Source: a virus. From it: a DNA stretch of 64,000 bases. The notes beneath the pieces are model-generated. The model was not told where the DNA came from, searched no databases, and saw only the letters and a program-made list of their open reading frames with translations. Below are positions 3-16,273 of this stretch, in pieces. The position numbers and the translations under genes are program-made. The DNA is taken from the IMG/VR virus record IMGVR_UViG_3300028025_006190, positions 1 through 64,000 of that record; one strand, given 5' to 3'. Numbering within the stretch: position 1 is the stretch's first letter; each line of letters starts with the position of its first letter.

Positions 3-3000
3 TCTGGAGGAGGCGGAGGAACACCTCCACCGCCCCCACCACCCGGAGGAGGGGGAGGGGAGACCCCTCCCGACGGTGGCGGAGGCACGGGACCGACTGA
101 CTCCGGAACTGGCGAGGCTTCATACCGTACGGGTACCCCTGGGGACGTAAATTTTCCTGAAACCGTAATTGTCAAAGATGAGTTCACTGGTGAAGCAGAG
201 CTTTATGACTACATTGACGGTGTTGGTTACGTTGGTCGTGACTCGGGACTCGTGATTAGTGATGAAGATCTCCGTGCTGAGGCGATCTTTGGTAATGTCA
301 CCGACACAAAGAACAACGATGTCACCGTAGGAGACACAGACACAACGTCTACAGAAGATGAAGAGGCCAAAAAGAGAGCCGCAGCCGATGAAGCTAAGGC
401 CGAGGCTGAGAGACAGGCTGCAGAAGCCGAAAGAGCCGCTGAGTCAGAAAGACAGCTCGAAGAAGACCGCAAAAGGAGAGCAGAAAAACTCGAAGCGGAG
501 CGTCAGCGTAATGCCAAGCAGCTTGACATGCCTGTCGATGAGTCTAAGTACGACGTAGAGGGGTGGGAGCGACCAGACCACGATCCGAACCTTGCTCAGG
601 AGCTTGTAGATAATTCCCAAGCCGAGACAGAAAAAATTATAGAAAAGTACGGCATTACTTCACCCGAATATAGAGACCAAGACGACAGAGCAAAGGCACT
701 ACTTACTGCTGCAGGCACTATTAAGAAACTTGCGGAGGCTGTTAAGTTTGAATATCTAACCTCAAGAATCTATCGACTAGGCAACATCGAAGTTGTTTTT
801 TCGAGGGACTACACCCCCGAGGCAATCAAAAAAGTACTGGCGCAGGTAAAAGAACTTCAAGAAAAGTTCCCCATCAACAAGCCCGACGGATCAGTTACCC
901 GTATCTGGGTCCACGACGGCGATGCCAAAGATCTGGCAGGAGGTCTTACTACTGCAAATGGAGACATCATTCTCCCACTTAAGGCTAGTAACCTAAACAA
1001 CCCCGACTTCATCCCCGCACAAAGTCTCCCCTCACGGCAGAATCTGATGCCAGCATTTGTTGAGCTGGCGGACCGGGGCGAGTGGTTCAAGTACCCGCTC
1101 ACACACGAGTGGGGTCACGCTCTCGCTATGGTGCCTGGTGGTCCGTACATCTACAACAACGTTGTACAAGAATTTTATCAATTCCTCAAAGACAACCCAG
1201 ACTTTGCAGAAACTCTTGAGGGCTACGCCAAGAAAAATATTACTGAAGCAACAGCAGAAGTATTTGCTCAGTGGTACCTCCAAAATAATGGCGTCTCGGC
1301 CAGTATGGATATTCCACAAGAAGCCATTGACATCATTCTTAGCAATAAAAAGAAAGCACCCGAAGGCGCTGGAGACCTATCTACCGTTACGCTACCTGCT
1401 GGCTGGGAAATTGGCGATGAGAAAGATATAGACGTACATATCGGTGGCCTGAAGAATCTTATTAAGCTCCAGGAAGACAGGCTAGAAAACCTATCTGGTG
1501 CAGAGCCAGACGCTGTTGTCGCCATCAGTATGGATGTTGGAGAGAAGATTATCGAGCTTGAGGCAATCATCTCGACAATTGAGGACAATAAAGAGTACCT
1601 AAAACCAATAAGTGTCGTGTCATTCAGTGGCGGTCCGATCGCAAAAATAGCCCCAAGATATGGAAGATGGGAATCCAAAAAAGATGGTGTTTTGTTGCTT
1701 GTCGATTCTCGGATGTCAGTTGATCAAATCAACGAGTTCCTTCAAAATGTAGATAACTTACGTAGTAGATTTGCTTTGACTTTCATCAGACCAGAAGACT
1801 CAACCGTATTCATCACTCTCATAGATGCTAAATCACCTGCAAGTGTGGACGCAAACAAGCTCTCCCCAACAGAGGGGACAATCCCATCTATAGGAAACCC
1901 GCTTACTAGTAATCTAGTAATTTTTGCAGATGGTGCATCTACCCTTAGAGATCAACTACGCCTGTCTGCCAATGTTAGAGAAGAGAATCCCTCACATGGT
2001 GACTCTTTTGCTGCACTAAATGAGCAAGGTAAGTGGTATCTGCACGAACTTGTAACCACCTGGGCCCGGAACCTGCCAAACAATGGCAACAGAAGAACAA
2101 TCTCTTCTGACCTGATCAACTCATACATAGTACAAAACGATCTCCCATATGCAGACAAGATAAATAAGAGCATGTCTACTGCAAATGTTTTTGATGAAAT
2201 TTTTGCTGACGCATTCTTCTCTGGTGTGGTTCCCGAGTGGATGCCTAGGATCTTTAATGAAGCATCTATTGCTGCACTCACAGCAGATCACGAAACTTAT
2301 GTACAAAAATCTGTAAAAATATTGCTAAGACTTTCTAACGGTCGTACTGTCCCGAGCCCAACTTCATCCGTACTCAGTAGCAGAGCTAGAAGACTTGTTG
2401 GTGCACTCCCCGGATTTATAGATGTGAGCGAGATTATCCCACGATCCACCACATGGACTCTAGGTATTGATAGCAATGAAATCGAGAAACTCCAGAAGGC
2501 GGCAGTCGAAAGAGAACTGGAAAGATGGAAAAACTACCCAGGAAACTTTAATAGTGGTATTAACATCAATACCATTCGACGTTGGATGAATGAAGAACAT
2601 GAAAAGTTTCATAGAGAAGTAATAAAAACTAGAAACAGATATTCTAGCCCCGGCGGCTCCGTTGTCTCCTTCCCCCCAGAAACTAATCAGGCAGTCGTTG
2701 ATCGGATGCTTAATCTGATCTCGTTCTTGGAAGAAAAAATGCCTATCTCGACGGGCCAAAAAGTTGTATTTTTGAATAGAGAAAGTAAATCAGAGCTGGC
2801 CCACTCATTCTATGGCCCCACCATCGAGGCATATCAAGATGTACACATGTTTGATTCTCAATTTGTGCTCGGTAATACTCTGCCACTACTTGGAGAAACT
2901 GAAAAAACTCCCTTCCACCCGCCGTCTAACTTTGTCCTGCCACAGGACATAACAACAATAATCCATGAGTGGATACACGCAAAAGACACAGACATGCCGG

Positions 3001-6000
3001 GGTCAGCAGACTATGCCTACAGGCCACCAAGATCTAGAAGAGAAAGAGTACTTAGAGCGCAATCAAATAAGTTGCGCAAACTCCTTAATGATAATAGGGG
3101 GTGGGCGAGTAAGTACCTTCCCTCGCGATATTCAGAAAAAACATACATGGAGTTCCTCGCTGAGCTAGGTCAGCAAGTTTTTGCTGAAGACTTCTTTGGA
3201 GCACCTAGAATTAGTCGTCCGCAGGAGCTTACGGACATAATCCGTGAGATGTACTCTCCAGAGGCTCGTGCCGAGGTTGAGGCTGCTCAGGCGCAAGGCA
3301 ATTTGCCAGACCCCGACTCAGAGATGAACATGCCGGGACTTGACAGCACTGCAACTCACTACGTTGCCACAGACGGTAATTATGGGGACGCTAGGGATAT
3401 TGCAATAGTGGATGCGTCTAAGTTTACTAATGACGACTGGGAGACAGTAGAAGCAGCTGACCCAGAAGAGCGCCCCGGTGTGGCTAGCATGCTTGCTTAC
3501 ATGCTCGGCTCTACCGGTACTCCAACACACTACGTGTCTCGGGATGGGAGTTATGGAGACGCTCGCAATATTGTATTTGTTGATGCTTCCATGTTCACCG
3601 AAGGCGACTGGGAAACAATTAATGAAGTGGATCCCAACCTAAGAGGCGAAAGAGCCACACTGCTCGAACAGATGTACAACAATGGGGGCCTCCCATCACC
3701 CGACGACGAGATGAACATGCTCAACGTTGAAGATGAAGATAGTGCCGACACGAACATCTGGGAACCAGTCTGGGAAGAGGTCGGCAGTTCAGAGATCCCC
3801 ACACTTGACCGCACTAGAGGGCAGATTATAAAAGAGTACGCGTCTAAGGTTCTTGGCGAGTCTCTTGTTGAAAAGGGAATTACTCAGGAGCAGCTTGGTG
3901 AGTTCCTCTACCTCAAAGTTATGCCTACGGATGGACTAGATCTTGAGGATATCTACAGACCCCAGGAGGGTGACACAGTTGATGCTGATCTTTCTGCAGT
4001 TATTAAGGTAGATTCCGAAGGTAACTGGAAAATTGAAAAACTGAGTAGATTCCTAGATCGAAACGGTCTAGACACAGGATACGATTTCGGAGCTGTTCCT
4101 CGTGATTTTGTTGATTCCGTGATTGAGGAAAATGCAAAACCAAATGAGACACTGGCTCTCTCTGGAACACCAGACGGACTTCGAGCTCTCGCTATTGCAG
4201 CAGCATCCATTGAGCTAAAAGATTGGGCACAGATTCTTAGTGGATCTGGTCAGGCACTCAGAAAAGACATTCAGCGTGCTGTCATAGAAATGTTCCCGGG
4301 GACTCTCAATGACCCAGACCTAATTAGAGAGTTCAACAACTTTAATATGTCTGCAAAAGAGATTGACCCAGTGACGATGGCTCTTGCCGAGTCTATGTAT
4401 GACATGACCCAAGAGTTTTTCCGTAGCCGGGGCATCTCGAACGTTACTATTTATCGTGGTGCCGGGAACATCCCAGAAGATATTCTTGACAATCTTGATG
4501 ACGCTAATGGAGTTCTTGCCAACCAGCAGCTTGTCACATTCCCGATCTCTTCTTGGACCACGGATCAGGACATGGCCTGGGACTTTGCACAGAGCTCGAG
4601 CGACTCCGTTGTGATGAGACGTAACGTTCCCGTTTCTGAGATCTTTGCCATTCCACTTAACGGTGTTGGAACATACGGCGAGCAGGAGCTTGTCACACTA
4701 GGTGGCACAATCAACGCTGACATCCAGGATTCTTCTCTATTTAGTGAGAACAACTGGCCAGAAGATGTCCCGGTATCGCCAGATGCCGAGATGAATATGC
4801 CTAGCGTTGATGGCGAAGAGCCCTACACGATGTCCTCTAAGTCATTTGATCGGCTGCTCCCACCAGACAGCCTTAACGAAGATGATGATGTTAATCCATA
4901 TCTTATGGAGGTCCCTGAGGCAGAAGAACTTATTCGCACACTCAAAAGTAACCTAGAAGGAAAAACTTTTGGACGGGATGGTCTCACTGTTGGAGAAATA
5001 ACGGTAGAACCATTTGAGTCTGTTGACCGAGATGTTGATGAGCTGGTACAAGGTATTAGGTACTCTTTTGAGGTGCTACAGAACGGAGCACGTGTCGGCT
5101 ATGTTTCTGAGGAAATTTATAGATATGAAGCATTCCCCGAAAAAATATATGAATCATTTAGTGTATTCCTAGAGGCAAAAAGTACTGGATTCACCACCGA
5201 GTGGCGTAAAGCAGCAGATAAGCTACACCGCCAGCTTGGGGTAGATGTGTCTGAAATATATGCTGTGGATGATGGATCTTGGTATTGGGCAATGAACGGC
5301 TATGGGTGGGTCGGAAGCGAAGAAACTCCTAGTCAGCTAGTAACATCTACAAGCGTTATTGATGCTGTTGAACAAGAAATGGACCTAGCAGAAAAAGCTG
5401 GAAGACTCGAAGACTTTAGAGCATTAAAAGAAATTAATGATCAACTTCTTGAAATGAATGGGACTAAACCATTTAACAAGGGAGAATACGTAACTCCTAG
5501 AGATATTGCTTCTCTAGTGTCAGAGGATGGTTCTAGTCTCGGTAGAACTATTATGCTTAACACGCCCTGGAATGCCGTCCTTAATATCCAAGAGGATCTC
5601 CCAGATCCCGGTGCAGAAATGAACATGCCTGACGTTCAGGGTCAAAGCAGCGAGTCAGTTAGTAAATCAAATGCTCCCGAGCCCGCGAGTGATCGCCAGT
5701 CAAAGGATGTCGCTCCTAGAAATGATGGATCCTCAAAGAGCATCGACAAGATTGATGAAATCTACCCAGCCGATATCAAAGACCCGGCCATTCAGATGAT
5801 CTATAACGACGGTGGAGACCAGGTTTTTGGTGAAGAGTCGTTTAGACAGATCAATGAAGTATTTGGTAATCCGAGACACCCAGTAATTATCTATAAAGCT
5901 GTGTCGGACAATGTGAACTCTATTGTCAGAGGAAACTCAGTTACTCTATCTAAGTCCCTCGCTGAGCAACAAGCTAAAGATATGTTTTTTTCAGATTTAG

Positions 6001-7358
6001 ATGAAGAAGAACGGATGTACCCTTTTGGGACAAAAGTTATATCTCGACAGGTTGAAGCTAGAGATGTGTTCACAGATGGCAACTCAATCCTTAACTGGGG
6101 ATATGACCCGATTGACACGCTAGAGCTCCCCGATCAGGTGCCCGCTGAAACACCGGCTGCCGGTACAGTAGACAATTTCCAGGACGGAATCGAACGTATC
6201 TACGATCCTGCATCTGAGCTAGTCCTTGAGGGCGAGTCAGACGTCATGAATGACAGCGCAATTCTTAAGCAAAGTGTTGCTGATCGAATCAGAGACATCA
6301 TGCGTGAGAAAGGCATCACGTGGACTCAGGCACGTGAACTACTACTAAATATGGTACTTGCAGATAAATTAAATATGAGTCAAGGCTCATTTGACGACAG
6401 CTGGCCAGATTTCGAGGACTTCCTTATGGGTGTCTCCCCAGACTATGACGCACAGAATGCCCAATTTGATGATCTAAATGTAGTCACCGCCCAATGGGGA
6501 GAGCCGCAAGTTTGGTCCGTAGATGAGTACACTAGCTGGGCCAAGCGTGCATACAACCTAGATATAGACGAGCGGACTCTAGATGGTCTTAGAGATCTTA
6601 TAAAAAGAGTAGAAGCTGCCTTTAATAAACAAGAATCAGAAAATGATCAACGTATAGGAAGAACCACCACACCAAACTATCGAGGTGCCGTCTACGGAAC
6701 ACCAGAGGCGGAAGATGTTCTTTTCTCTCTGGCAACCTCTGGCCTACTATCTACCTGGGCCTACACCTCGGTAGATGGGGTGATTGCTCCGGCTATGCAA
6801 AGCATTGTTGCAGATATGTTTGGAGTCGAGAACAAAATAGAAGCAGACAATATTGACCGTGATTTTTATGATGAGTATATGGATTTTAAGAATGCAAATC
6901 TAACAACACTCACCGCAGCAATAGAAGCCATGTATGAGTCCACTCAAGAGTTCTTCCGTAGCCAAGGAATTACGCATGTACGGGCGCATCGAGGGATTCA
7001 ACTCTCCCTAGACTCAATGGAAAATGAAGATTTGACTGATTCGGATAAGAAAATACTTGAAGATATAAAACAAGCACAAGCTAATCCCGAGTCCTTTGAT
7101 TTCACACACTATCCGCTCTCGTCTTGGTCATTTGATCCAGACCAGGCAGTTAGATTTGCCAACATGGATCTGACTAAGTTTCTGAGAAGACGTGGTGTAG
7201 TCATGGTAACTATCGTCCCAATCGAAGACATTTTTTCTCTTCCCTATTTCGGCCTCGGGGCCCTAGATGAGTATGAACTTGTTCTTGTTGGAAACCAACT
7301 CAGGCTTGTCCAGATCGTAGATGTCACCCCAGACGAGTACAGAGACTACGAGAACTAA
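3..7358 (+). CDS. Giant polyvalent protein: three zincin-like and three ADP-ribosyltransferase-like domains (5' partial)
   Basis: The reading frame is open from the window edge, so the gene starts upstream. Residues here count from the GTG at 252. A Gly/Pro-rich stretch (before 120) leads into an Ala/Glu/Arg coiled coil (about 30-95). Three metallopeptidase-like domains follow with HEWGH at 285-289, a degenerate HELVT at 598-602 and HEWIH at 905-909. A duplicated THYV...GDAR module (about 1035-1140) comes next. Two complete-looking ADP-ribosyltransferase domains have R1402, S-S-W at 1433-1435 and E1477-x-E1479, and R2247, S-S-W at 2290-2292 and E2340-x-E2342. A more diverged ART-like segment (about 1880-1950) has Lys in the Arg position. 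Four P-x-x-EMNM linkers separate blocks. Known family context: polyvalent phage proteins are packaged or injected with DNA and act on host defences or host proteins. Location just before the head genes fits a virion protein. The individual targets are unknown. Confidence 0.8.
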   Translation, partial: SGGGGGTPPPPPPPGGGGGETPPDGGGGTGPTDSGTGEASYRTGTPGDVNFPETVIVKDEFTGEAELYDYIDGVGYVGRDSGLVISDEDLRAEAIFGNVTDTKNNDVTVGDTDTTSTEDEEAKKRAAADEAKAEAERQAAEAERAAESERQLEEDRKRRAEKLEAERQRNAKQLDMPVDESKYDVEGWERPDHDPNLAQELVDNSQAETEKIIEKYGITSPEYRDQDDRAKALLTAAGTIKKLAEAVKFEYLTSRIYRLGNIEVVFSRDYTPEAIKKVLAQVKELQEKFPINKPDGSVTRIWVHDGDAKDLAGGLTTANGDIILPLKASNLNNPDFIPAQSLPSRQNLMPAFVELADRGEWFKYPLTHEWGHALAMVPGGPYIYNNVVQEFYQFLKDNPDFAETLEGYAKKNITEATAEVFAQWYLQNNGVSASMDIPQEAIDIILSNKKKAPEGAGDLSTVTLPAGWEIGDEKDIDVHIGGLKNLIKLQEDRLENLSGAEPDAVVAISMDVGEKIIELEAIISTIEDNKEYLKPISVVSFSGGPIAKIAPRYGRWESKKDGVLLLVDSRMSVDQINEFLQNVDNLRSRFALTFIRPEDSTVFITLIDAKSPASVDANKLSPTEGTIPSIGNPLTSNLVIFADGASTLRDQLRLSANVREENPSHGDSFAALNEQGKWYLHELVTTWARNLPNNGNRRTISSDLINSYIVQNDLPYADKINKSMSTANVFDEIFADAFFSGVVPEWMPRIFNEASIAALTADHETYVQKSVKILLRLSNGRTVPSPTSSVLSSRARRLVGALPGFIDVSEIIPRSTTWTLGIDSNEIEKLQKAAVERELERWKNYPGNFNSGININTIRRWMNEEHEKFHREVIKTRNRYSSPGGSVVSFPPETNQAVVDRMLNLISFLEEKMPISTGQKVVFLNRESKSELAHSFYGPTIEAYQDVHMFDSQFVLGNTLPLLGETEKTPFHPPSNFVLPQDITTIIHEWIHAKDTDMPGSADYAYRPPRSRRERVLRAQSNKLRKLLNDNRGWASKYLPSRYSEKTYMEFLAELGQQVFAEDFFGAPRISRPQELTDIIREMYSPEARAEVEAAQAQGNLPDPDSEMNMPGLDSTATHYVATDGNYGDARDIAIVDASKFTNDDWETVEAADPEERPGVASMLAYMLGSTGTPTHYVSRDGSYGDARNIVFVDASMFTEGDWETINEVDPNLRGERATLLEQMYNNGGLPSPDDEMNMLNVEDEDSADTNIWEPVWEEVGSSEIPTLDRTRGQIIKEYASKVLGESLVEKGITQEQLGEFLYLKVMPTDGLDLEDIYRPQEGDTVDADLSAVIKVDSEGNWKIEKLSRFLDRNGLDTGYDFGAVPRDFVDSVIEENAKPNETLALSGTPDGLRALAIAAASIELKDWAQILSGSGQALRKDIQRAVIEMFPGTLNDPDLIREFNNFNMSAKEIDPVTMALAESMYDMTQEFFRSRGISNVTIYRGAGNIPEDILDNLDDANGVLANQQLVTFPISSWTTDQDMAWDFAQSSSDSVVMRRNVPVSEIFAIPLNGVGTYGEQELVTLGGTINADIQDSSLFSENNWPEDVPVSPDAEMNMPSVDGEEPYTMSSKSFDRLLPPDSLNEDDDVNPYLMEVPEAEELIRTLKSNLEGKTFGRDGLTVGEITVEPFESVDRDVDELVQGIRYSFEVLQNGARVGYVSEEIYRYEAFPEKIYESFSVFLEAKSTGFTTEWRKAADKLHRQLGVDVSEIYAVDDGSWYWAMNGYGWVGSEETPSQLVTSTSVIDAVEQEMDLAEKAGRLEDFRALKEINDQLLEMNGTKPFNKGEYVTPRDIASLVSEDGSSLGRTIMLNTPWNAVLNIQEDLPDPGAEMNMPDVQGQSSESVSKSNAPEPASDRQSKDVAPRNDGSSKSIDKIDEIYPADIKDPAIQMIYNDGGDQVFGEESFRQINEVFGNPRHPVIIYKAVSDNVNSIVRGNSVTLSKSLAEQQAKDMFFSDLDEEERMYPFGTKVISRQVEARDVFTDGNSILNWGYDPIDTLELPDQVPAETPAAGTVDNFQDGIERIYDPASELVLEGESDVMNDSAILKQSVADRIRDIMREKGITWTQARELLLNMVLADKLNMSQGSFDDSWPDFEDFLMGVSPDYDAQNAQFDDLNVVTAQWGEPQVWSVDEYTSWAKRAYNLDIDERTLDGLRDLIKRVEAAFNKQESENDQRIGRTTTPNYRGAVYGTPEAEDVLFSLATSGLLSTWAYTSVDGVIAPAMQSIVADMFGVENKIEADNIDRDFYDEYMDFKNANLTTLTAAIEAMYESTQEFFRSQGITHVRAHRGIQLSLDSMENEDLTDSDKKILEDIKQAQANPESFDFTHYPLSSWSFDPDQAVRFANMDLTKFLRRRGVVMVTIVPIEDIFSLPYFGLGALDEYELVLVGNQLRLVQIVDVTPDEYRDYEN

Positions 7359-8062: not shown

Positions 8063-11000
8063 ATGGCTAATTTTGTTGGCAGATCTGGATCACTTCTGCT
8101 TTTCGTCCTAGACGACAGAGGTGTAGTTGTCGATTCTGATGTAAACCTTATTGTTGCATCCGGCAAGGCTGAGCCTCTGCAAAGCTCTCGCAGCTGGGCC
8201 CCCGGAGAGTTCTCCGAAGAATCCCATGACCTAGCAGACTCGGGTCTTTCTTTTGTTGACCTATCTATTACAGCAGACGGTAGTCGGATGTACACCATCC
8301 CCAAAGCCGCCCAAGCTGAAGCTAAGAAAGCTCTTGAGTGGAGAAAAGAAGAAGGCCGTGGCGGTACGTCTGTCGGTATCAACACTGCTCGTACGCTTGC
8401 TAAGGGTGGACAGATCGGTATCGAGAAGGTCCGCCACATTTCAAAGTATTTTGCTCGTCACGAAGTTGACAAAAAGGGCAAGGGCTGGAAACCAGCTCAA
8501 GACGGGTTCCCATCCAACGGCCGTATCGCGTGGGCACTCTGGGGTGGTGACGCTGCATGGCGTTGGGCCCGTGCCATCGTTGAGCGTGAAAACAAAAAAT
8601 CCATTACAGCAGACGGATACGGCATTGCCGAGGGTAGATATGACTATGGCTACCCCACAGCTCCATACGAGCTTGATGACTTTAAGGTCGCCCAAGAGGC
8701 CGAAGACATGGTCATACCAGAGTTCCTTGCTCGAGTTCGCCTCGACGGATCTGGTTTTGATCGACTCTACAAAATTGATCTCGACGGCAATGTCTATGTC
8801 TGGGATGACGGTGTTTGGGATAATCTCGGCTACAGCGGAAAAGATATCTGGGTCTATGACAATGAGCTCGACGACCCCGCAGATGCCAGAGTAGAGAAGT
8901 CGCACATTGTTATTGACCCGTCCTCTGCTATTACGATTGCAGCTCGACTCCTCAATAACCCGTATAGATTTGTTACACTGGAACAAATTGACGCAGCGGA
9001 AGCAGATCTTGCTAACGAAGCAATCCCACACATTGACTGGGAGATCGTTGAGCGCGGAATGCTCGCTGCCGGTGAAATAGATCCGGGGGACGGCATCTAC
9101 ACCGAAGAGGAGCGTTCCGCGAACGCCTCGAAACAGGTCCGTGACGCCACGGGCAAGTTTACAACAACCGGTTCTAGAGTTATGATCGGCGGCGACGCAA
9201 GAAGAGGTCTCGGTCAGATCACTAAAATAAATCCCGGACAAAATACCGTTGAGGTCAAACTAGATAACGGCAAGACCGTCACTGTTCCCGGTAACGCTGT
9301 AGAGGACGCTCCTGATGAGCAGTTTGACTCAACGGCTGGCGGACCAGCTGTGTCGTCTAGAATTGATACGAGCGGAATTCTTGGTGAGCCTAGAACACCA
9401 ATTAATAGCGTTAAAGCTCAGCTACCTGGGACTCTCCCAGCTATGACTGACGGTGACCTAAAAGAGATGCTCTCCAATTGGCCAGCATGGGTAAACAAGC
9501 AACGATCTGAGTTCAAGCCGGCATCTTCGAGAGGGCCTGTCCCGGTTCAAGGCAAGAACAGCCTTGATATCGGTAACTGGGGTCGTTCTTTCGAGAAAGA
9601 GACTGGTAAGCAGCTCATCAAGAATGCCTACGACCACCCGCTACTGAACAGATGGCTGAATAGTCAAAATACTGCCGGCGAGTACCCAAACAGAGCTTGG
9701 TACAACCCAATTACGGCAGCTGTTAAGGGAGAGCCCGAAAAGGCTGTATCGCCAGAGACAACAGATGTTCAACCTATTTACATGGCCGTTGTTGACAAGG
9801 ATGACCCTAGAGCAGTTCTCGAGCTCGTAGCTATTGTTCCTGCTAGCGACAAGTCTAGCTCCGCGATGACGTACAAGCGAAATGAAGGTAAGTGGGTCCG
9901 CGACACAAAGACCCTTCAGGATCTTAAGTCGGCTACACCACCACCAGTTGTTCCTCTTGACACAGACACACTCCAGGATGTCCTCAAGCAGGTTGACCAG
10001 ACTCAAGGTGTAACAGCTTCTCTCATTATGTCTGTCCTCTTTGGGCCAACGCTTCTCGCTGCTGGCGGCCTAGACCGCAACCGTGGGAACGCAGAGAAGC
10101 TTAGAAGATATTGGACAGTTGGTAAGGGTGCTGCAAAGATTCGCTGGGGCACACCTGGAGACTGGAAGCGTTGCGTACGTCACCTATCTAAGTACATGGG
10201 TGTTCGCTCGAAGGGCTACTGCCAGCTACGCCACAAGGAAGTTACTGGTGTCTACACGGGCAGCAAACTTAACCCCGGTAACGAGAACTCGATCAACGAA
10301 GCTGGCTCTGGTATTCCCGAAGAAGTACTGTACGGGATGCCCGAGAGCATGATTCAATATGAAATCCCCAAGATCGATCTTGAGATGACTCTGGATGAGA
10401 TTATCCGAGAAGAAGATGATCTATATGACGACAGCTGGGACCCCGAGGAAGAAATTGTAGAACAGCTCAGGGTTCTTGGATCATGCGATGACAGGCAGTA
10501 CGCACTTCTTGCAGCTGGTGGCCTAGATCGTAACCAAGGCAAGGCCGAGGAGCTTCGTCGGTATTGGACTGTCGGCAAGGGTGGAGCAAAAATCCGCTGG
10601 GGAACTCCAGGGGATTGGACTCGTTGTGTTCGGAACCTGTCTAAGTACCTAGGAACACGCTCGAAGGGGTATTGCGCCCTCCGACACAAAGAGGTTAATG
10701 GAGTCTGGCCAGGAGAGCAGAACACGAACGAGTATGTCATCATGGCATCCGGCACACGAGTCTCCGCTGATCAAGTTCTTCGCAGTGAAGAGGAGTTCAT
10801 TGCGCTCTCCGAACTGTCTGTCCGATCTGACGTACTAAAGGCTCGAGTAGCTGGTGCATACGGCTTTGTAAAGAGGGCCGGACAAGATGTAAATATCCCA
10901 ACAAACTCCTTCTTCTTCCACAACAGAGCTGAAGTCCCTAGTGGGATGGAAAACACCCTGAAGAGGGAAGAGCCGTTTGATGAGGGTGAGGTTTACATTG

Positions 11001-11197
11001 AGGACCTTATTCCATCGCAGAAAACAGTAAACATGCGCAGAGTATCGTCCGTCTCCGGAGCAGATAAGCCAGTCATGGTTCTTATTACTGAAAACGGCCC
11101 GGTACTGATTGATGGTCACCACAGGACGGTATCTCGGATGATGTCCGGATCCAACACTATCCCCGCAAAGATATACAAGATGAGTGAGACCTACTGA
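8063..11197 (+). CDS. Head-associated multidomain protein with duplicated Cys module and ParB-like C-terminus
   Basis: This protein has 1,044 residues. About 85-180 match a conserved phage segment found near capsid protease genes (an RTLAKGG...ARHEVD...GRIAWALWGGD...W pattern). Residues about 350-415 contain a small beta-rich KOW-like stretch (GQITKINPGQNTVEVKLDNG). A roughly 70-residue module (AAGGLDRN...RYWTVGKG...IRWGTPGDW...CV..LSKY...SKGYC.LRHKE) occurs twice, near 670-735 and 815-880. Each copy has two conserved Cys and an RHKE. The last 90 residues resemble a ParB/sulfiredoxin-like domain with D1017-G-H-H-R1021. The gene overlaps the capsid protease gene by one base. A head-assembly or co-packaged effector role is likely; the exact function is not established. 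Confidence 0.6.
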   Translation: MANFVGRSGSLLLFVLDDRGVVVDSDVNLIVASGKAEPLQSSRSWAPGEFSEESHDLADSGLSFVDLSITADGSRMYTIPKAAQAEAKKALEWRKEEGRGGTSVGINTARTLAKGGQIGIEKVRHISKYFARHEVDKKGKGWKPAQDGFPSNGRIAWALWGGDAAWRWARAIVERENKKSITADGYGIAEGRYDYGYPTAPYELDDFKVAQEAEDMVIPEFLARVRLDGSGFDRLYKIDLDGNVYVWDDGVWDNLGYSGKDIWVYDNELDDPADARVEKSHIVIDPSSAITIAARLLNNPYRFVTLEQIDAAEADLANEAIPHIDWEIVERGMLAAGEIDPGDGIYTEEERSANASKQVRDATGKFTTTGSRVMIGGDARRGLGQITKINPGQNTVEVKLDNGKTVTVPGNAVEDAPDEQFDSTAGGPAVSSRIDTSGILGEPRTPINSVKAQLPGTLPAMTDGDLKEMLSNWPAWVNKQRSEFKPASSRGPVPVQGKNSLDIGNWGRSFEKETGKQLIKNAYDHPLLNRWLNSQNTAGEYPNRAWYNPITAAVKGEPEKAVSPETTDVQPIYMAVVDKDDPRAVLELVAIVPASDKSSSAMTYKRNEGKWVRDTKTLQDLKSATPPPVVPLDTDTLQDVLKQVDQTQGVTASLIMSVLFGPTLLAAGGLDRNRGNAEKLRRYWTVGKGAAKIRWGTPGDWKRCVRHLSKYMGVRSKGYCQLRHKEVTGVYTGSKLNPGNENSINEAGSGIPEEVLYGMPESMIQYEIPKIDLEMTLDEIIREEDDLYDDSWDPEEEIVEQLRVLGSCDDRQYALLAAGGLDRNQGKAEELRRYWTVGKGGAKIRWGTPGDWTRCVRNLSKYLGTRSKGYCALRHKEVNGVWPGEQNTNEYVIMASGTRVSADQVLRSEEEFIALSELSVRSDVLKARVAGAYGFVKRAGQDVNIPTNSFFFHNRAEVPSGMENTLKREEPFDEGEVYIEDLIPSQKTVNMRRVSSVSGADKPVMVLITENGPVLIDGHHRTVSRMMSGSNTIPAKIYKMSETY

Positions 11198-14196
11198 TGA
11201 CAACAAACTACAACATCTCCCAAAAAGTGCTTGACGCACTAATTGCTTCAGGAAGTATCTCTGGGTCAAAGTTTGTCATTCCCCTTGTTATCCCTGAGGG
11301 AGTTGAGTCTGGTGACGGACGCATGTTCAAGAAGGGCTCGATCTCTATGCGGGATCTTCCTCTTCCACTTTTGTGGCAGGTCAAGACCGGAGCTGGCCAC
11401 GACGGCTCTGTTGTTGTGGGTCGGATCGATCATATGGAAAGAACTGACGAAGGCATTGGTAATGCCTACGGCTACTTTGATTCCGGAGAATATGGTCAAG
11501 AAGCCGAAAGACTAGTCAGAGAAGGATTCATCCGGGGAGTTTCTGCGGACATGGATCAGTTCGAGGCGCAAGAAACAGAAGACGAAATTACTGCCGCTGA
11601 GCTTGCAAAAAACGAAAAACCCAAAAAAATTGAAAAAGAAAAACTTACCATAAATAAGGCCCGCGTAATGGCGGTTACAATAGTACCTAAGCCCGCATTT
11701 CAAGAATGCAGTATTTCGCTTGCAAACGATGACGGGGACGTTTCTCAGGAGGAAACTATGATTCCAGATGGAATTTACATCGAAGATGTAGACCCAAATG
11801 AAGCCGAAGCAGTTGTTGCTAGTGGCATGATTGCTGGTGCAATCCCCACAGAGCCACCTGCTGATTGGTTCAACAACCCCAAGCTCAGTGAGCCGACCCC
11901 TCTTACGGTTGACAACCAGGGCCGTGTGTTTGGTCACATCGCTGCTTGGCACGTTGATCACATTGGCATGGCATTCGGAACCCGCCCACCTCGTAGCCGT
12001 AGCAACTACGGATACTTCCACACAGGCGTCTGCCGTACCGCCGAGGGTGCAGACATCCCTGTTGGCCAGCTAACTCTCGCCGGTGGTCACGCTGATATTA
12101 CAGCATCTGCCGCTGAGGCCGTCAAGCACTACGATGACACAGCATCCGCTGTAGCCGATGTTCACGCTGGTGAAGATCAGTATGGTATCTGGGTTGCCGG
12201 TGCACTTCGACCTGGTGTATCTCCTGAGCAGGTACGCGCACTTCGTGCCTCGGCTCCTTCCGGTGACTGGCGTCCAATTAAGGGTGGCCTCGAGCTTGTT
12301 GCTGTTTGTCAGGTAAACGTTCCTGGGTTCCCGATCGCACGCGCACGTGTTGCTTCTGGTCAGGTTATGGCTCTGGTTGCAGCTGGTGCCCACGCACTTG
12401 CCAAGCTTCGGACTAGCCCACTAGACGAACTCTCTGCCCGCATCCAGAAGCTGGAGACAGACAAGACTCAGGCTCTAGCTACTCAGCAGGATGAGCTCCG
12501 TGCTCGCTTTGCATCGATGACAGCAGAGTTCTCAGCCAAGCCAGAGCCAGTAGTTGCTGGTGGATCTCCCGACATGGCAGCAGCCTTAGAGCAGTTGCTT
12601 GCAGATAGCGTTGCGTACTCGTTCAAGGCTCAGGGCTACCACTGGAACGTCAAGGGTCAGGACTTCGCTCAGTACCACGAACTATTCGGTGAGGTCTACT
12701 CAGACGTTTACGGATCCATCGACTCAATTGCCGAGAGCATGCTCAAGCTAGGGTACGACGCTCCATTTAATATTGGACAGTGGGCCTCGCAAAACAGCAT
12801 CGGTAACGGTGGGGTAACCTCCACATCTTGCCAGGCCATGGCTTATGACCTCTACATAGGTAGCGAGCAGATGGTTGCACTTCTCAAGGGTGTGTTCGAC
12901 ATTGCTAACGCAATGAACGAGCAAGGGGTTGCTAACTTCCTCGCCGAGAGAATTGAATCTCAGCAGAGATGGTCATGGCAGCTTGGTGCTTCTTCTGCAG
13001 AGTACAAGCAAGAAAAAGAAGAGTACATGGAGATGGAAGCCGCCGAGTACGAGCCTGGTGGCTACGAGTATGGCGAAGATATGGATGCCTACGAGTATGC
13101 ATTCTCTAACCTAGAGAAGAATGGTGTGTACGAGGCATCAATCATTGCCAGTGCTTCGGACCCCCAGACCCGTGTAGATGCATTCTTTGCTGTCGCTGAG
13201 TTCGCTAAATTCACTGACGATGAGCGTAAAGAATTGGCAAAGAAAGGTTGGGCTATGCCAGATGGTGCATACCCGATCCGTAACGAGTCTGATCTAAAGA
13301 ATGCAATCAAAGCTTACGGCCGTGCATCGCTCAAGGAGCAGGTCGCCACTAAGAAGCACATCATCAAGCGTGCGCGGGCTCTTGGCCTTGTTGCCATGCT
13401 CCCCGATGTGTGGCACATCAAGAATGCATCCACTTCGGAGTTCAGCATCGACAACATGCGTGAAGCTGCAGCCAAGCGGTCTAAAGACCTTAGTGATCCT
13501 GTCTTCCAGCTCCGTGCTCGCGTTGCTTCTGCCAAGTCAGATCTAGAAGATGCCCTAGAAGTGGCTCGAAAGTCTGGAAATCTAGAAGCTGTTCGTCAGG
13601 CTGAGAAGGACATCAGGGAGATCAACAAAGATCAAACTGAGATACCAACTACGCCAGGTGTAGTTGAGCGTGATGAATTTGGTCGTATCAAGTTCACCGC
13701 AAAGACTCAGCCGAGAGACGCTCGTGGTCGATTCCGCGACGTTCTTGCACGCCTCAAGTCTAATCTCGGTACCTCTGGTAGCCAGAATGTTGTTGCCAAG
13801 ATTAAGGCCGCTGAGAACCTAGACAACACCGGAAACTATGCCGGAGCCGTTGAGGCAGTTGCTGACCTCATTAATACAATTGACCGCCTAGATACTGGTG
13901 CTCTAAACAAGGAATCCCTTGAGAACATCACACGTACCACTACCGATCTCGGTAAGGTCATTGCAAATCTTCCCCTCCCATTCTCTAACCAAGCACAGAA
14001 GGTTCGTTACAGTGACCTACCTCCTGCGCTCCAAGACCTGATGAAAAACATGATCACTAAGGTCGAGGAAAAGATTGGACAGGAAGACGCGGATATTGCA
14101 ACGCAAGAGCTCCGTGGATTTATGTCAGGGTCTGACGTTTATAGTCAGGGCGAGGTTTCGTCCCAGATGAATAAATTGCTCAGATTGCTTACATAA
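11197..14196 (+). CDS. Capsid maturation protease with embedded Dps/ferritin-like domain
   Basis: This protein has 999 residues. The N-terminus (about 20-180) looks like an HK97-type prohead protease: LPLPLLWQ, a candidate catalytic H68 in GHDGS, the GNAYGYFD strand and candidate S116 in RGVSADM. An actinophage-type second domain follows (about 215-400; FGHIAAWHVDHIG...GVCRTAEG). Residues about 460-600 are a clear Dps-like four-helix domain with HWNVKG at 482. H482, H494, D509 and E513 keep the exact spacing of the E. coli Dps ferroxidase residues H51, H63, D78 and E82, but the D67 position is Gly498. A final conserved phage segment (about 660-750) has MPDGAYPIRNE..LKNAI.AYGR. The family role is to cleave scaffold and capsid precursors inside the prohead. 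The Dps part could bind iron or DNA in the virion (inference). It lies directly upstream of the major capsid gene. Confidence 0.75.
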   Translation: MTTNYNISQKVLDALIASGSISGSKFVIPLVIPEGVESGDGRMFKKGSISMRDLPLPLLWQVKTGAGHDGSVVVGRIDHMERTDEGIGNAYGYFDSGEYGQEAERLVREGFIRGVSADMDQFEAQETEDEITAAELAKNEKPKKIEKEKLTINKARVMAVTIVPKPAFQECSISLANDDGDVSQEETMIPDGIYIEDVDPNEAEAVVASGMIAGAIPTEPPADWFNNPKLSEPTPLTVDNQGRVFGHIAAWHVDHIGMAFGTRPPRSRSNYGYFHTGVCRTAEGADIPVGQLTLAGGHADITASAAEAVKHYDDTASAVADVHAGEDQYGIWVAGALRPGVSPEQVRALRASAPSGDWRPIKGGLELVAVCQVNVPGFPIARARVASGQVMALVAAGAHALAKLRTSPLDELSARIQKLETDKTQALATQQDELRARFASMTAEFSAKPEPVVAGGSPDMAAALEQLLADSVAYSFKAQGYHWNVKGQDFAQYHELFGEVYSDVYGSIDSIAESMLKLGYDAPFNIGQWASQNSIGNGGVTSTSCQAMAYDLYIGSEQMVALLKGVFDIANAMNEQGVANFLAERIESQQRWSWQLGASSAEYKQEKEEYMEMEAAEYEPGGYEYGEDMDAYEYAFSNLEKNGVYEASIIASASDPQTRVDAFFAVAEFAKFTDDERKELAKKGWAMPDGAYPIRNESDLKNAIKAYGRASLKEQVATKKHIIKRARALGLVAMLPDVWHIKNASTSEFSIDNMREAAAKRSKDLSDPVFQLRARVASAKSDLEDALEVARKSGNLEAVRQAEKDIREINKDQTEIPTTPGVVERDEFGRIKFTAKTQPRDARGRFRDVLARLKSNLGTSGSQNVVAKIKAAENLDNTGNYAGAVEAVADLINTIDRLDTGALNKESLENITRTTTDLGKVIANLPLPFSNQAQKVRYSDLPPALQDLMKNMITKVEEKIGQEDADIATQELRGFMSGSDVYSQGEVSSQMNKLLRLLT

Positions 14197-14326: not shown

Positions 14327-16273
14327 GTGGACCACATCAAATCACAGCTGGACATGCTAGCTGAGCTCGACGACACACAGGTCGAAGATCTTCAGAACAG
14401 TATTGTCACTGAGTTTGAGTCGATGGAACAAAGCGACCCCACTCCAGAGTCAGTAGATGCCATGACAACCCTAGCGGACATGCTTGAAACAGTCCGTGGC
14501 GAGGTGTCACGTCGTGAAGTTGAGGCGCAGGAGCTTGCTGCTCGTGCGTCCGAGGCTGCCGACCGTGTACACAACGCAGAGGGAACAGAACAGGAGGAGG
14601 CTCCTATGGAGGAGACCCCAATGGAGGAAGAGACAGAAGCTCCGATGACCGAAGACATGCCTGAAGAGGACATGATGGAGGAAGACGAGAAGAAGGTTGT
14701 TCCTGCGGAAGCATCGACTGACGTGGAGGAGGCAGCCGAGTTTGCATCGGACTCCGAATCTGCAGAAGTAGAGAGCGTTGAACCAGTGACCGAAACAACA
14801 ACTGAGGTTGTTGTTGAAGACGCTGTAGAGCTTTCTACCGAAACAACAGAGGCTGAGGCTGAGGTAGTAGAGGAGACAATTGTCGCCGCTATCGAGGCCG
14901 AGGTTGACACACCAGCTGAAGCAGAAGCTTCAGTTGTAGAAGAAACAACTATTGAGCCTGAATCGGCTCAGGAAGAGGCACCCGTGACCGCCGCAGCAGA
15001 AGAGGCCTTCGAGGCCCCAGCTGACCGTCGTTTCGTAGCACAGGTTGTCGAGACACCCGTGGCAATCACTGCGGGTGCTGACATTCCAGGCTACACAGCT
15101 GGCAGCACAATTGAATCAATGAGCGACGTTGCAGTTGCGATGGAGAAGCGTCTCCACTCGCTACGCCGCGTCAACGGTGGAGATGGTGAGCAGCACATTG
15201 TTGCTTCTATCGCTACCCAGTACCCTTCGGATCGTATCCTTGGTACTGACCCAGAAGAGAACCGTCAGAAGATTGAGAACGTTGTTGGAGCAGAGGCGCT
15301 TGTCGCTTCGGGTGGTTACGCCACTCCGCTTCAGGTTCGTTACGATGTCTTTGGTCTCGGTACAGCAGCACGTCCCGTTCGTGACGCGCTTCCTCGTTTC
15401 CAGGCAGACCGTGGTGGTATCCGCTACGTAACTCCTCCAGTACTTAGCTCATACGCTAACGCTGTTGGTGTCTGGACAAACGCGACCGATACAACACCTG
15501 AAGCAAACACCAAGACAAGCCTTACTGTTACGGCAGCCCAGGAGCAGACAGCATACACAGACGCTGTTACTCTGCAGATGCAGTTCGGTAACTTGTTTAG
15601 CCGTGCGTACCCAGAGCTTCTGGCCCGCCACAACGAGCTTGGTCTAATCCAGCACGCTCGTGAGGCAGAGCAGAACATCCTGAGCCGCATCGGTACTGCT
15701 TCGACGGCTGTTACAACCACAAGCCTCATCGGCTTTGGTCGTGACTTCCTCGTTCAGATCAAGCGGGCCGCGTCGGCTTACCGTACGCGTCACCGTATCG
15801 ACCCAAACACACAGCTTCGTGCGATCATCCCTTCGTGGGTGTACGACGCTATGTCGGCTGACTTGACCCTGGCTATGCCTGGTGACTCAACAATCAGCGT
15901 GGGTGCTTCGGAGATCAACGGCTACCTCGCTTCGTCGAACGTATCGCTCGTTGCTTCGCTCGATGGTACGCAGTTCGCTTCGCAGTCGGGTTCGGGTGCT
16001 GCTCTCCAGGAGTTCCCAGACTCGTTCGTTTGGTACCTCTTCGCTGAGGGTTCGTTCATCTTCCTCGATGGTGGAACACTTGACCTCGGAATCATCCGTG
16101 ACTCCGGTCTTGTCGGCACCAACGACTACAAGATGTTCGTTGAGACCTTCGAGGGCGTTGCCTTCGTCGGTACCGAGTCGCTTGCTATTACGTCGACCAT
16201 CTCGGTCAACGGTGTAGCTGCAGCTCTCCGCGACACAACTGGTGGCGCTACTGCTGCCGCCGTCGAGTACTAA
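14327..16273 (+). CDS. Major capsid protein with long acidic scaffold-like N-terminal region
   Basis: This protein has 648 residues from a GTG start with AAGGAGAGG upstream. Residues about 1-90 are helical. About 90-245 are extremely acidic low-complexity sequence (E/A/T/V-rich, repeated MEE and TTE runs). About 250-648 look like an HK97-fold major capsid protein: GGYATPLQVRYDVFGLG, RPVRDALPRFQADRGG, an SRAYPELLARH helix, an IPSWVYDAM segment and an FVWYLFAEGSFIFLDGG strand near the end. The N-terminal half probably acts as a built-in scaffolding (delta) domain removed by the upstream protease; this is known for HK97-like systems and inferred here. A hairpin terminator follows at 16297. Codon use (many GCT, CGT, TCG) suggests high expression. 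Confidence 0.8.
   Translation: MDHIKSQLDMLAELDDTQVEDLQNSIVTEFESMEQSDPTPESVDAMTTLADMLETVRGEVSRREVEAQELAARASEAADRVHNAEGTEQEEAPMEETPMEEETEAPMTEDMPEEDMMEEDEKKVVPAEASTDVEEAAEFASDSESAEVESVEPVTETTTEVVVEDAVELSTETTEAEAEVVEETIVAAIEAEVDTPAEAEASVVEETTIEPESAQEEAPVTAAAEEAFEAPADRRFVAQVVETPVAITAGADIPGYTAGSTIESMSDVAVAMEKRLHSLRRVNGGDGEQHIVASIATQYPSDRILGTDPEENRQKIENVVGAEALVASGGYATPLQVRYDVFGLGTAARPVRDALPRFQADRGGIRYVTPPVLSSYANAVGVWTNATDTTPEANTKTSLTVTAAQEQTAYTDAVTLQMQFGNLFSRAYPELLARHNELGLIQHAREAEQNILSRIGTASTAVTTTSLIGFGRDFLVQIKRAASAYRTRHRIDPNTQLRAIIPSWVYDAMSADLTLAMPGDSTISVGASEINGYLASSNVSLVASLDGTQFASQSGSGAALQEFPDSFVWYLFAEGSFIFLDGGTLDLGIIRDSGLVGTNDYKMFVETFEGVAFVGTESLAITSTISVNGVAAALRDTTGGATAAAVEY

What the first reader, a model, noticed from the sequence alone, without database searches (positions are those of the whole stretch)
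3..7358. A giant polyvalent protein with three protease-like and three ADP-ribosyltransferase-like domains
Seen in sequence: zincin motifs HEWGH (285-289), a broken HELVT and HEWIH (905-909), and two ART domains with the full R, S-S-W and E-x-E set (1402/1433/1477-1479 and 2247/2290/2340-2342), plus a third diverged one. Known: polyvalent phage proteins combine such effector domains and are delivered with the genome. Inference: this is a delivered anti-host or anti-defence weapon.
Basis: partly seen in the sequence, partly recalled or inferred. Interest (0 to 1): 0.78.

Follow-up and report, generated by a model that had tools for sequence, protein, structure and literature searches.

The report
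Giant phage-head effector protein, 5'-truncated
A virus of (probably) freshwater actinobacteria carries, among its head-building genes, one huge protein made of several enzyme-like modules, two of them convincing ADP-ribosyltransferases and two likely proteases, which most likely rides in the virus head and is released into the host with the DNA; it is a new example of the known 'polyvalent protein' strategy.

Summary
The ORF is cut off by the contig start, so its N-terminus is missing.

ART1 and ART3 are paralogues. With homologues in Bacillus phage SP-15 and actinobacterial plasmids they keep an invariant R, S and [E/Q]xE; ART1 also gives a sub-threshold Pfam DRAT match. The middle ART-like domain belongs to another family in which R and E are almost invariant, but here both are replaced: it is probably dead.

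The three zincin-like domains are related by alignment. No profile or structural match confirms the zincins; both AlphaFold models failed.

Context is the strongest support. The gene lies just before the capsid protease and capsid genes. Nearly all inspected relatives have a 2,087-4,511-aa protein there, with exchangeable domains (ArdC-N/MPTase, ART, UvrD, exonuclease, zeta toxin). Most share an N-terminal QxRDxxG[RK]F motif with the neighbouring head proteins.

Best reading: a head-packaged, injected polyvalent effector with two ARTs and probable self-processing proteases. New member of a known kind; delivery and targets are inferred.

The parts
3..7358 (+). Giant multidomain ORF, 2,451+ aa, open at its 5' end because the contig starts here
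3..110 (+). Pro/Gly-rich low-complexity linker at the contig edge, the likely reason for the assembly break (inference)
690..1412 (+). Zincin-like domain 1 (res 230-470), HEWGH at 368-372 plus EATAE downstream; predicted active
1620..2282 (+). Zincin-like domain 2 (res 540-760), homologous to domain 1 but TTWAR at the HExxH position; predicted dead
2523..3332 (+). Zincin-like domain 3 (res 841-1110), HEWIH at 988-992 plus EFLAE downstream; predicted active
3312..3341 (+). Repeated linker motif copy 1, PDPDSEMNMP
3354..3686 (+). Two tandem ~60-aa repeats (THYVxxDGxYGDARxI...), sub-threshold match to DUF5784; homologous to a small ORF of phage DSL-LC01
3699..3728 (+). Repeated linker motif copy 2, PSPDDEMNML
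4122..4721 (+). ART1 (res 1374-1573): R1485, S1517, E1560/E1562; predicted active
4779..4808 (+). Repeated linker motif copy 3, SPDAEMNMP
4962..5531 (+). GNAT-like domain (res 1654-1843), shared with giant proteins of the closest relatives and with a GNAT-annotated protein of a Nocardia plasmid
5607..5636 (+). Repeated linker motif copy 4, PDPGAEMNMP
5688..6125 (+). ART-like domain 2 (res 1896-2041), family annotated 'ParB C-terminal domain' in PHROGs; catalytic R and E replaced by K and N; predicted dead
6627..7355 (+). ART3 (res 2209-2451): R2330, S2374, E2423/E2425; paralogue of ART1; predicted active
8063..11197 (+). Neighbour, 1,044 aa, head-module protein with motif QVRDATGKF at residue 358
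11197..14196 (+). Neighbour, 999 aa, head maturation protease-like protein with an embedded ferritin/Dps-like domain and motif QPRDARGRF at residue 838
14327..16273 (+). Major capsid protein; anchor for synteny

Best explanation
The ORF is the C-terminal part (2,451 aa) of a polyvalent effector. In this phage group one giant protein is encoded between portal and capsid maturation protease/capsid genes, made with the head proteins, taken into the prohead through an N-terminal region (absent from this contig), and released into the host with the DNA. Inside the host the two intact ART domains would ADP-ribosylate host proteins; the ExE form of their active site points to arginine as acceptor. 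The zincin domains 1 and 3 most likely cut the chain at its linkers or cut a host protein. Zincin 2 and ART 2 have lost catalytic residues and would act as binding or spacer modules. Shown: domains, homology, residue conservation or loss, gene position. Inferred: packaging, delivery, enzyme activity, targets.
For: Reading frame and motifs. ART1 and ART3 are paralogues (phmmer 1e-17) and with SP-15 and six actinobacterial plasmid homologues keep R, S, G-x-G and [E/Q]xE; DRAT match E 2.2e-4, 20.9 bits against a cut-off of 25. Zincin 1 is homologous to 2 and 3 (z 6.1 and 5.6; 4.2 and 3.6 with HExxH masked). The ART2 family keeps R in 37/39 and E in 36/39, while this copy has K and N. Synteny: portal, giant, protease, MCP in the closest relatives and in DSL-LC01. 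Relatives' slot proteins carry ADPrib_exo_Tox, ArdC-N + MPTase-PolyVal, UvrD helicase, RNase_T, zeta toxin, PI3/4-kinase at shifting positions. The ART2-type domain also occurs inside a MuF + Alt-like protein next to a portal gene. The motif QxR[DN]xxG[RKQ][FW] is in 24 of 26 giants (22 of 24 tested within the first 300 aa, none in shuffles) and in flanking head proteins, and in none of 200 ORFs from MCP onward.
Against: No Pfam, PHROG or NCBIfam match above cut-off for the zincins or for ART1/ART3; no PDB profile match to an ART. AlphaFold models unusable (pLDDT 40 and 35). The N-terminus that should hold the head motif is off the contig and could not be recovered. No experimental data on this phage group were found.
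Confidence: 0.66

Rival explanations
1. A polyvalent protein made late that acts inside the producing cell (for example on capsid assembly or host takeover) and is never packaged.
For: Packaging was not observed; the gene is in the late head module, so the protein is present in the producing cell in any case.
Against: Relatives fill the slot with early-infection domains such as ArdC-N antirestriction, which make most sense on incoming DNA; the N-terminal motif is shared with head proteins.
Confidence: 0.15
2. Mainly a structural or scaffolding head protein whose enzyme-like domains are decaying leftovers.
For: One of three zincins and one of three ARTs have lost catalytic residues; size and position resemble head-interior proteins.
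Against: Two ARTs and two zincins keep complete active sites although sequence around them has diverged to about 30% identity; domain content changes completely between relatives, unlike a structural protein.
Confidence: 0.1
3. ART1/ART3 are real ARTs, but the HExxH domains are not zincin peptidases and bind something else.
For: No metallopeptidase profile match; assignment rests on a short motif.
Against: HExxH plus downstream ExxAE twice, homologous domains in tandem with the motif in register; zincins are the commonest domain in polyvalent proteins (PMC5512222).
Confidence: 0.15

Closest known systems
Polyvalent proteins of phages and conjugative elements (Iyer et al. 2017, PMC5512222)
   Same: Giant chain of unrelated effector-type domains, several zincins and ARTs per chain, encoded among portal/head genes
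   Different: The prototype ART of that set is the HYD2 type (H-Y-D); here it is R-S-ExE. No ArdC-N, MuF or primase domain in the part seen; zincins match none of the Pfam polyvalent peptidase models
Phage T4 Alt (head-packaged ART)
   Same: ART proposed to be carried in the head and injected
   Different: Alt is a single-enzyme protein; no sequence similarity detected here; packaging not shown
Phage P1 DarB / Dar system (PMC9024508)
   Same: Very large head protein; DarB's first 30 residues direct cargo to the capsid, as proposed here for the N-terminal motif
   Different: DarB is an antirestriction protein; no comparison of its sequence with the motif here was made
DraT (Pfam DRAT, PF07357)
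   Same: Sub-threshold profile match across ART1's R-S-ExE region
   Different: Score below the curated cut-off; ART3 and plasmid homologues do not match; no nitrogenase context
Mycobacteriophage 'ParB C-terminal domain' proteins (PHROG 2579)
   Same: Homologous to ART-like domain 2 (about 32% identity)
   Different: Stand-alone 129-aa proteins with R and E intact; the window copy has lost both
Giant slot protein WJZ48510.1 of Actinomycetia phage DSL-LC01 (OQ999401)
   Same: Same place before the capsid protease genes, same size class, with repeated linker motifs
   Different: No domain in common with the window protein was detected; not discussed in its paper (PMC10611076)

Membership tests
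Phage polyvalent proteins | Several unrelated effector-type domains in one polypeptide | tested here: met
   ART, GNAT-like, zincin-like and repeat modules in one frame
Phage polyvalent proteins | Encoded with portal/head-packaging genes | tested here: met
   Protease and MCP downstream; portal upstream in relatives; the window's own upstream side is missing
Phage polyvalent proteins | Packaged in the virion and delivered | not testable with these tools
   Needs virion proteomics; only indirect motif evidence from relatives
ADP-ribosyltransferases, R-S-E class (ART1, ART3) | Conserved R, S and [E/Q]xE in order | tested here: met
   R, S and the final E invariant over nine diverse homologues, E or Q two residues before it
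ADP-ribosyltransferases, R-S-E class (ART1, ART3) | ART fold or profile match above cut-off | tested here: inconclusive
   DRAT 20.9 of 25 bits for ART1 only; AlphaFold failed; no PDB match to an ART
ADP-ribosyltransferase (ART-like domain 2) | Catalytic R and E present | tested here: not met
   K and N instead; R 37/39 and E 36/39 in the family
Zincin-like metallopeptidases (domains 1 and 3) | HExxH plus a downstream glutamate | tested here: met
   HEWGH...EATAE and HEWIH...EFLAE
Zincin-like metallopeptidases (domains 1 and 3) | Zincin fold or profile match | tested here: inconclusive
   No Pfam match; model confidence too low
Zincin-like metallopeptidase (domain 2) | HExxH | tested here: not met
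   TTWAR at the aligned position
MPTase-PolyVal / ArdC-N | Pfam PF18818 or PF08401 match | tested here: not met
   None in the window protein; present in relatives' slot proteins
MuF fusion proteins | MuF head-morphogenesis domain | tested here: inconclusive
   None in the 2,451 aa seen; the N-terminus is missing

The most novel reading that the evidence does not exclude
This phage group uses one interchangeable cargo slot: any effector chain behind an N-terminal GGNS..ARS.RAR.Q.RD..G[RK]F region is loaded into the head, because that motif is shared with the maturation protease/scaffold and the adjacent head protein and acts as a common capsid-targeting (or protease-cleavage) signal. The giant protein would then be a swappable injected payload, of which the window's dual-ART, dual-zincin chain is one version.
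Probability: 0.35. Interest if true: 0.66.

Novelty: new member of a known kind. Interest (0 to 1): 0.46.

Why it matters
It shows a whole lineage of (probably) freshwater actinobacterial phages keeping a dedicated gene position for injected multi-enzyme payloads of 2,000-4,500 residues, adds an R-S-ExE ART family shared by phages and actinobacterial plasmids, and offers a simple, testable candidate for the signal that loads such giants into a phage head.

Tried and rejected
Profile searches of the whole ORF and of each segment (Pfam, PHROGs, NCBIfam) gave almost nothing above cut-off. PDB profile searches of the ART alignments hit only human MRE11's C-terminal region, rejected as spurious: it is not an ART and the match does not include the E-x-E motif. 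AlphaFold on the zincin stretch and on ART1 gave pLDDT 35 and 40; no fold search was run because matches of such models are meaningless. Viral and genome collection scans with zincin and ART peptides found no relatives; no homologue of the zincin-like domains was found outside this protein. Profile-profile comparison of the two ART families with each other and with a relative's ADPrib_exo_Tox domain was not significant. Genome-level scans for DRAT and ADPrib_exo_Tox in the window's record were negative. The missing N-terminus was sought in other contigs by an exact pattern near the contig start: none. The idea that the EMNMP linkers are sites for the capsid protease was considered and not adopted: the motif occurs nowhere else in the record and not in the capsid protein. 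The contig is not circular by end overlap.

Full report
What is there. The window is bases 1-64000 of a 76,977-base IMG/VR record. A single frame runs from base 3 to a stop at 7358. It has no upstream stop because the contig itself starts there, inside a Pro/Gly-rich low-complexity stretch. The protein is therefore longer than 2,451 residues and its N-terminus is unknown.

Are the motifs more than chance? In 2,000 shuffles of the protein, HExxH followed by ExxAE never occurred twice (observed 2), and the loose ART triad reached the observed count in 2 of 2,000. An [ASDG]EMN[ML] linker motif occurs four times (shuffle mean 0.001), each time between recognisable modules, and nowhere else in the record.

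ART1 and ART3. Residues 1374-1570 and 2218-2433 are paralogues (phmmer 1e-17; about 33% identity). tblastn found a homologue in Bacillus phage SP-15 (E 1e-3) and more in Streptomyces, Verrucosispora, Rhodococcus and Euzebya plasmids (best E 1e-8), in two cases fused to a Nudix domain, in one near a type IV coupling-protein gene. In the nine-sequence alignment the invariant columns include the R of the YRG-type motif, the second S of SSW, G-x-G, and the final E of [E/Q]xE. ART1 alone matches Pfam DRAT at E 2.2e-4, 20.9 bits against a cut-off of 25. This is the R-S-E class; it differs from the H-Y-D type that Iyer et al. describe as the prototype in polyvalent proteins (PMC5512222). The ExE form suggests arginine as acceptor; that rests on general knowledge of ARTs and was not tested.

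ART-like domain 2. Residues 1896-2039 match PHROG 2579, 'ParB C-terminal domain' (1.7e-13), small mycobacteriophage proteins, a relative's giant protein, and 43 IMG/VR loci. In a 39-sequence alignment the YRA arginine is present in 37 and the E of NE[FW]G in 36; the window copy has K and N and also lacks the conserved GDW. One such domain lies in a 2,023-aa protein after a portal gene, together with a MuF-type head-morphogenesis region and an Alt-like ADP-ribosyltransferase match; another lies in a 1,311-aa protein with two ADPrib_exo_Tox domains, next to a terminase gene. That the family is an ART family is inferred from R-S-E and context; profile comparison with ART1/ART3 was not significant.

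Zincin-like domains. Three stretches (about 230-470, 540-760, 841-1110) align with each other: Smith-Waterman z 6.1 (1 with 2) and 5.6 (1 with 3) against 500 shuffles, still 4.2 and 3.6 with HExxH masked; 2 with 3 is not significant directly. Hidden Markov alignment puts HEWGH and HEWIH in register. In domain 2 the ungapped alignment places TTWAR at the HExxH position, so the quoted HELVT lies a few residues upstream of the active-site position. No profile library recognises these domains and no homologue was found elsewhere. They are zincin-like by motif, spacing and tandem homology, not by proven fold.

Other modules. Residues about 1654-1843 are shared with the giant proteins of the closest relatives, L085 and L099, and with a Nocardia plasmid protein annotated as GNAT acetyltransferase that itself gives only sub-threshold GNAT matches. 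Two tandem repeats at about 1118-1228 give a sub-threshold DUF5784 match and match a small ORF of phage DSL-LC01.

Surroundings. Downstream come two small ORFs, a 1,044-aa head-module protein, a 999-aa head maturation protease-like protein with an embedded ferritin-like domain, and the major capsid protein. The capsid gene matches that of Actinomycetia phage DSL-LC01 (71.6% DNA identity), which carries a 3,289-aa protein in the same slot, not discussed in its paper (PMC10611076).

Relatives. A scan with the capsid protein found 321 relatives, 80 kept. Twenty-nine upstream regions were fetched. Most carry one complete ORF of 2,087-4,511 aa between a ~530-600-aa ORF (portal by profile in L085) and the protease; a few have smaller or split versions. 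Their Pfam matches include RNase_T, UvrD helicase, ArdC-N with MPTase-PolyVal, zeta toxin, PI3/4-kinase, ADPrib_exo_Tox and sigma-70 region 4. Pairwise coverage between giants ranges from 0 to 100%, and shared segments shift in position (119 such alignments), i.e. modules are exchanged.

A shared N-terminal signal. 24 of 26 giants hold Q-x-R-[DN]-x-x-G-[RKQ]-[FW]; 22 of 24 tested have it in the first 300 residues, against none in shuffles, mostly embedded in GGNSxxARSxRARxQxRDxxGRF. The same motif occurs in 39 of 74 ORFs downstream of the giant in these loci (the 1,044-like and protease proteins), and in none of 200 ORFs from the capsid gene onward. It also lies near the start of the smaller slot ORFs of L089 and L091 and of the 1,311-aa multi-ART protein of L144. 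In P1, the first 30 residues of DarB are enough to send a reporter to the capsid (PMC9024508). By analogy the motif is a candidate loading or processing signal. In the window record it is seen only in the two neighbours, since the giant's N-terminus is missing.

Mechanism, with steps marked. Shown: modules, homology, conservation and loss of catalytic residues, gene position, family-wide slot. Inferred: co-synthesis with the head, loading through the N-terminal region, release with the DNA, ADP-ribosylation of host proteins, self-cleavage or host cleavage by the zincins. Iyer et al. propose autoprocessing or effector roles for such peptidases (PMC5512222). The inactive copies probably serve as binding or spacer modules.

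Verdict. A new member of the polyvalent protein kind.

Noticed in passing
window 11197-14196: The head maturation protease-like ORF (999 aa) carries an embedded ferritin/Dps-like domain (PF00210, E 7.8e-13, residues 462-598), a possible DNA-binding cargo fused to the protease.
   Followed up: partly
window 8063-11197: The 1,044-aa head-module ORF has a duplicated phrog_6439 module (two stretches) and, by eye, a ParB-like C-terminal end with DGHHRT; it looks like a second polyvalent-type protein.
   Followed up: no
L085-L113 slot ORFs, window 8063-14196: Motif QxR[DN]xxG[RK]F shared by giant slot proteins, the 1,044-like protein and the protease; absent from 200 ORFs from the capsid gene onward.
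   Followed up: yes
L164 4375-7953, L168 2342-5752: Actinobacterial plasmids encode ~1,150-aa proteins with an N-terminal Nudix domain fused to the ART1/ART3-type domain, each shortly downstream of a CehA/McbA metallohydrolase gene.
   Followed up: partly
L004 1998-2387: Mycobacteriophage proteins annotated 'ParB C-terminal domain' (e.g. Pumpkin gp129) look like stand-alone R-S-E ART-like domains; the name may be misleading.
   Followed up: partly
L003 3231-13100: DSL-LC01's 3,289-aa slot protein has its own repeated linker, DDAEMARYGEDDEDRTP, twice, echoing the EM-type linkers of the window protein.
   Followed up: no
L002 15374-16711 (record 75373-76710): An ORF near the far contig end looks by eye like an M23-type peptidase with a membrane segment.
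   Followed up: no
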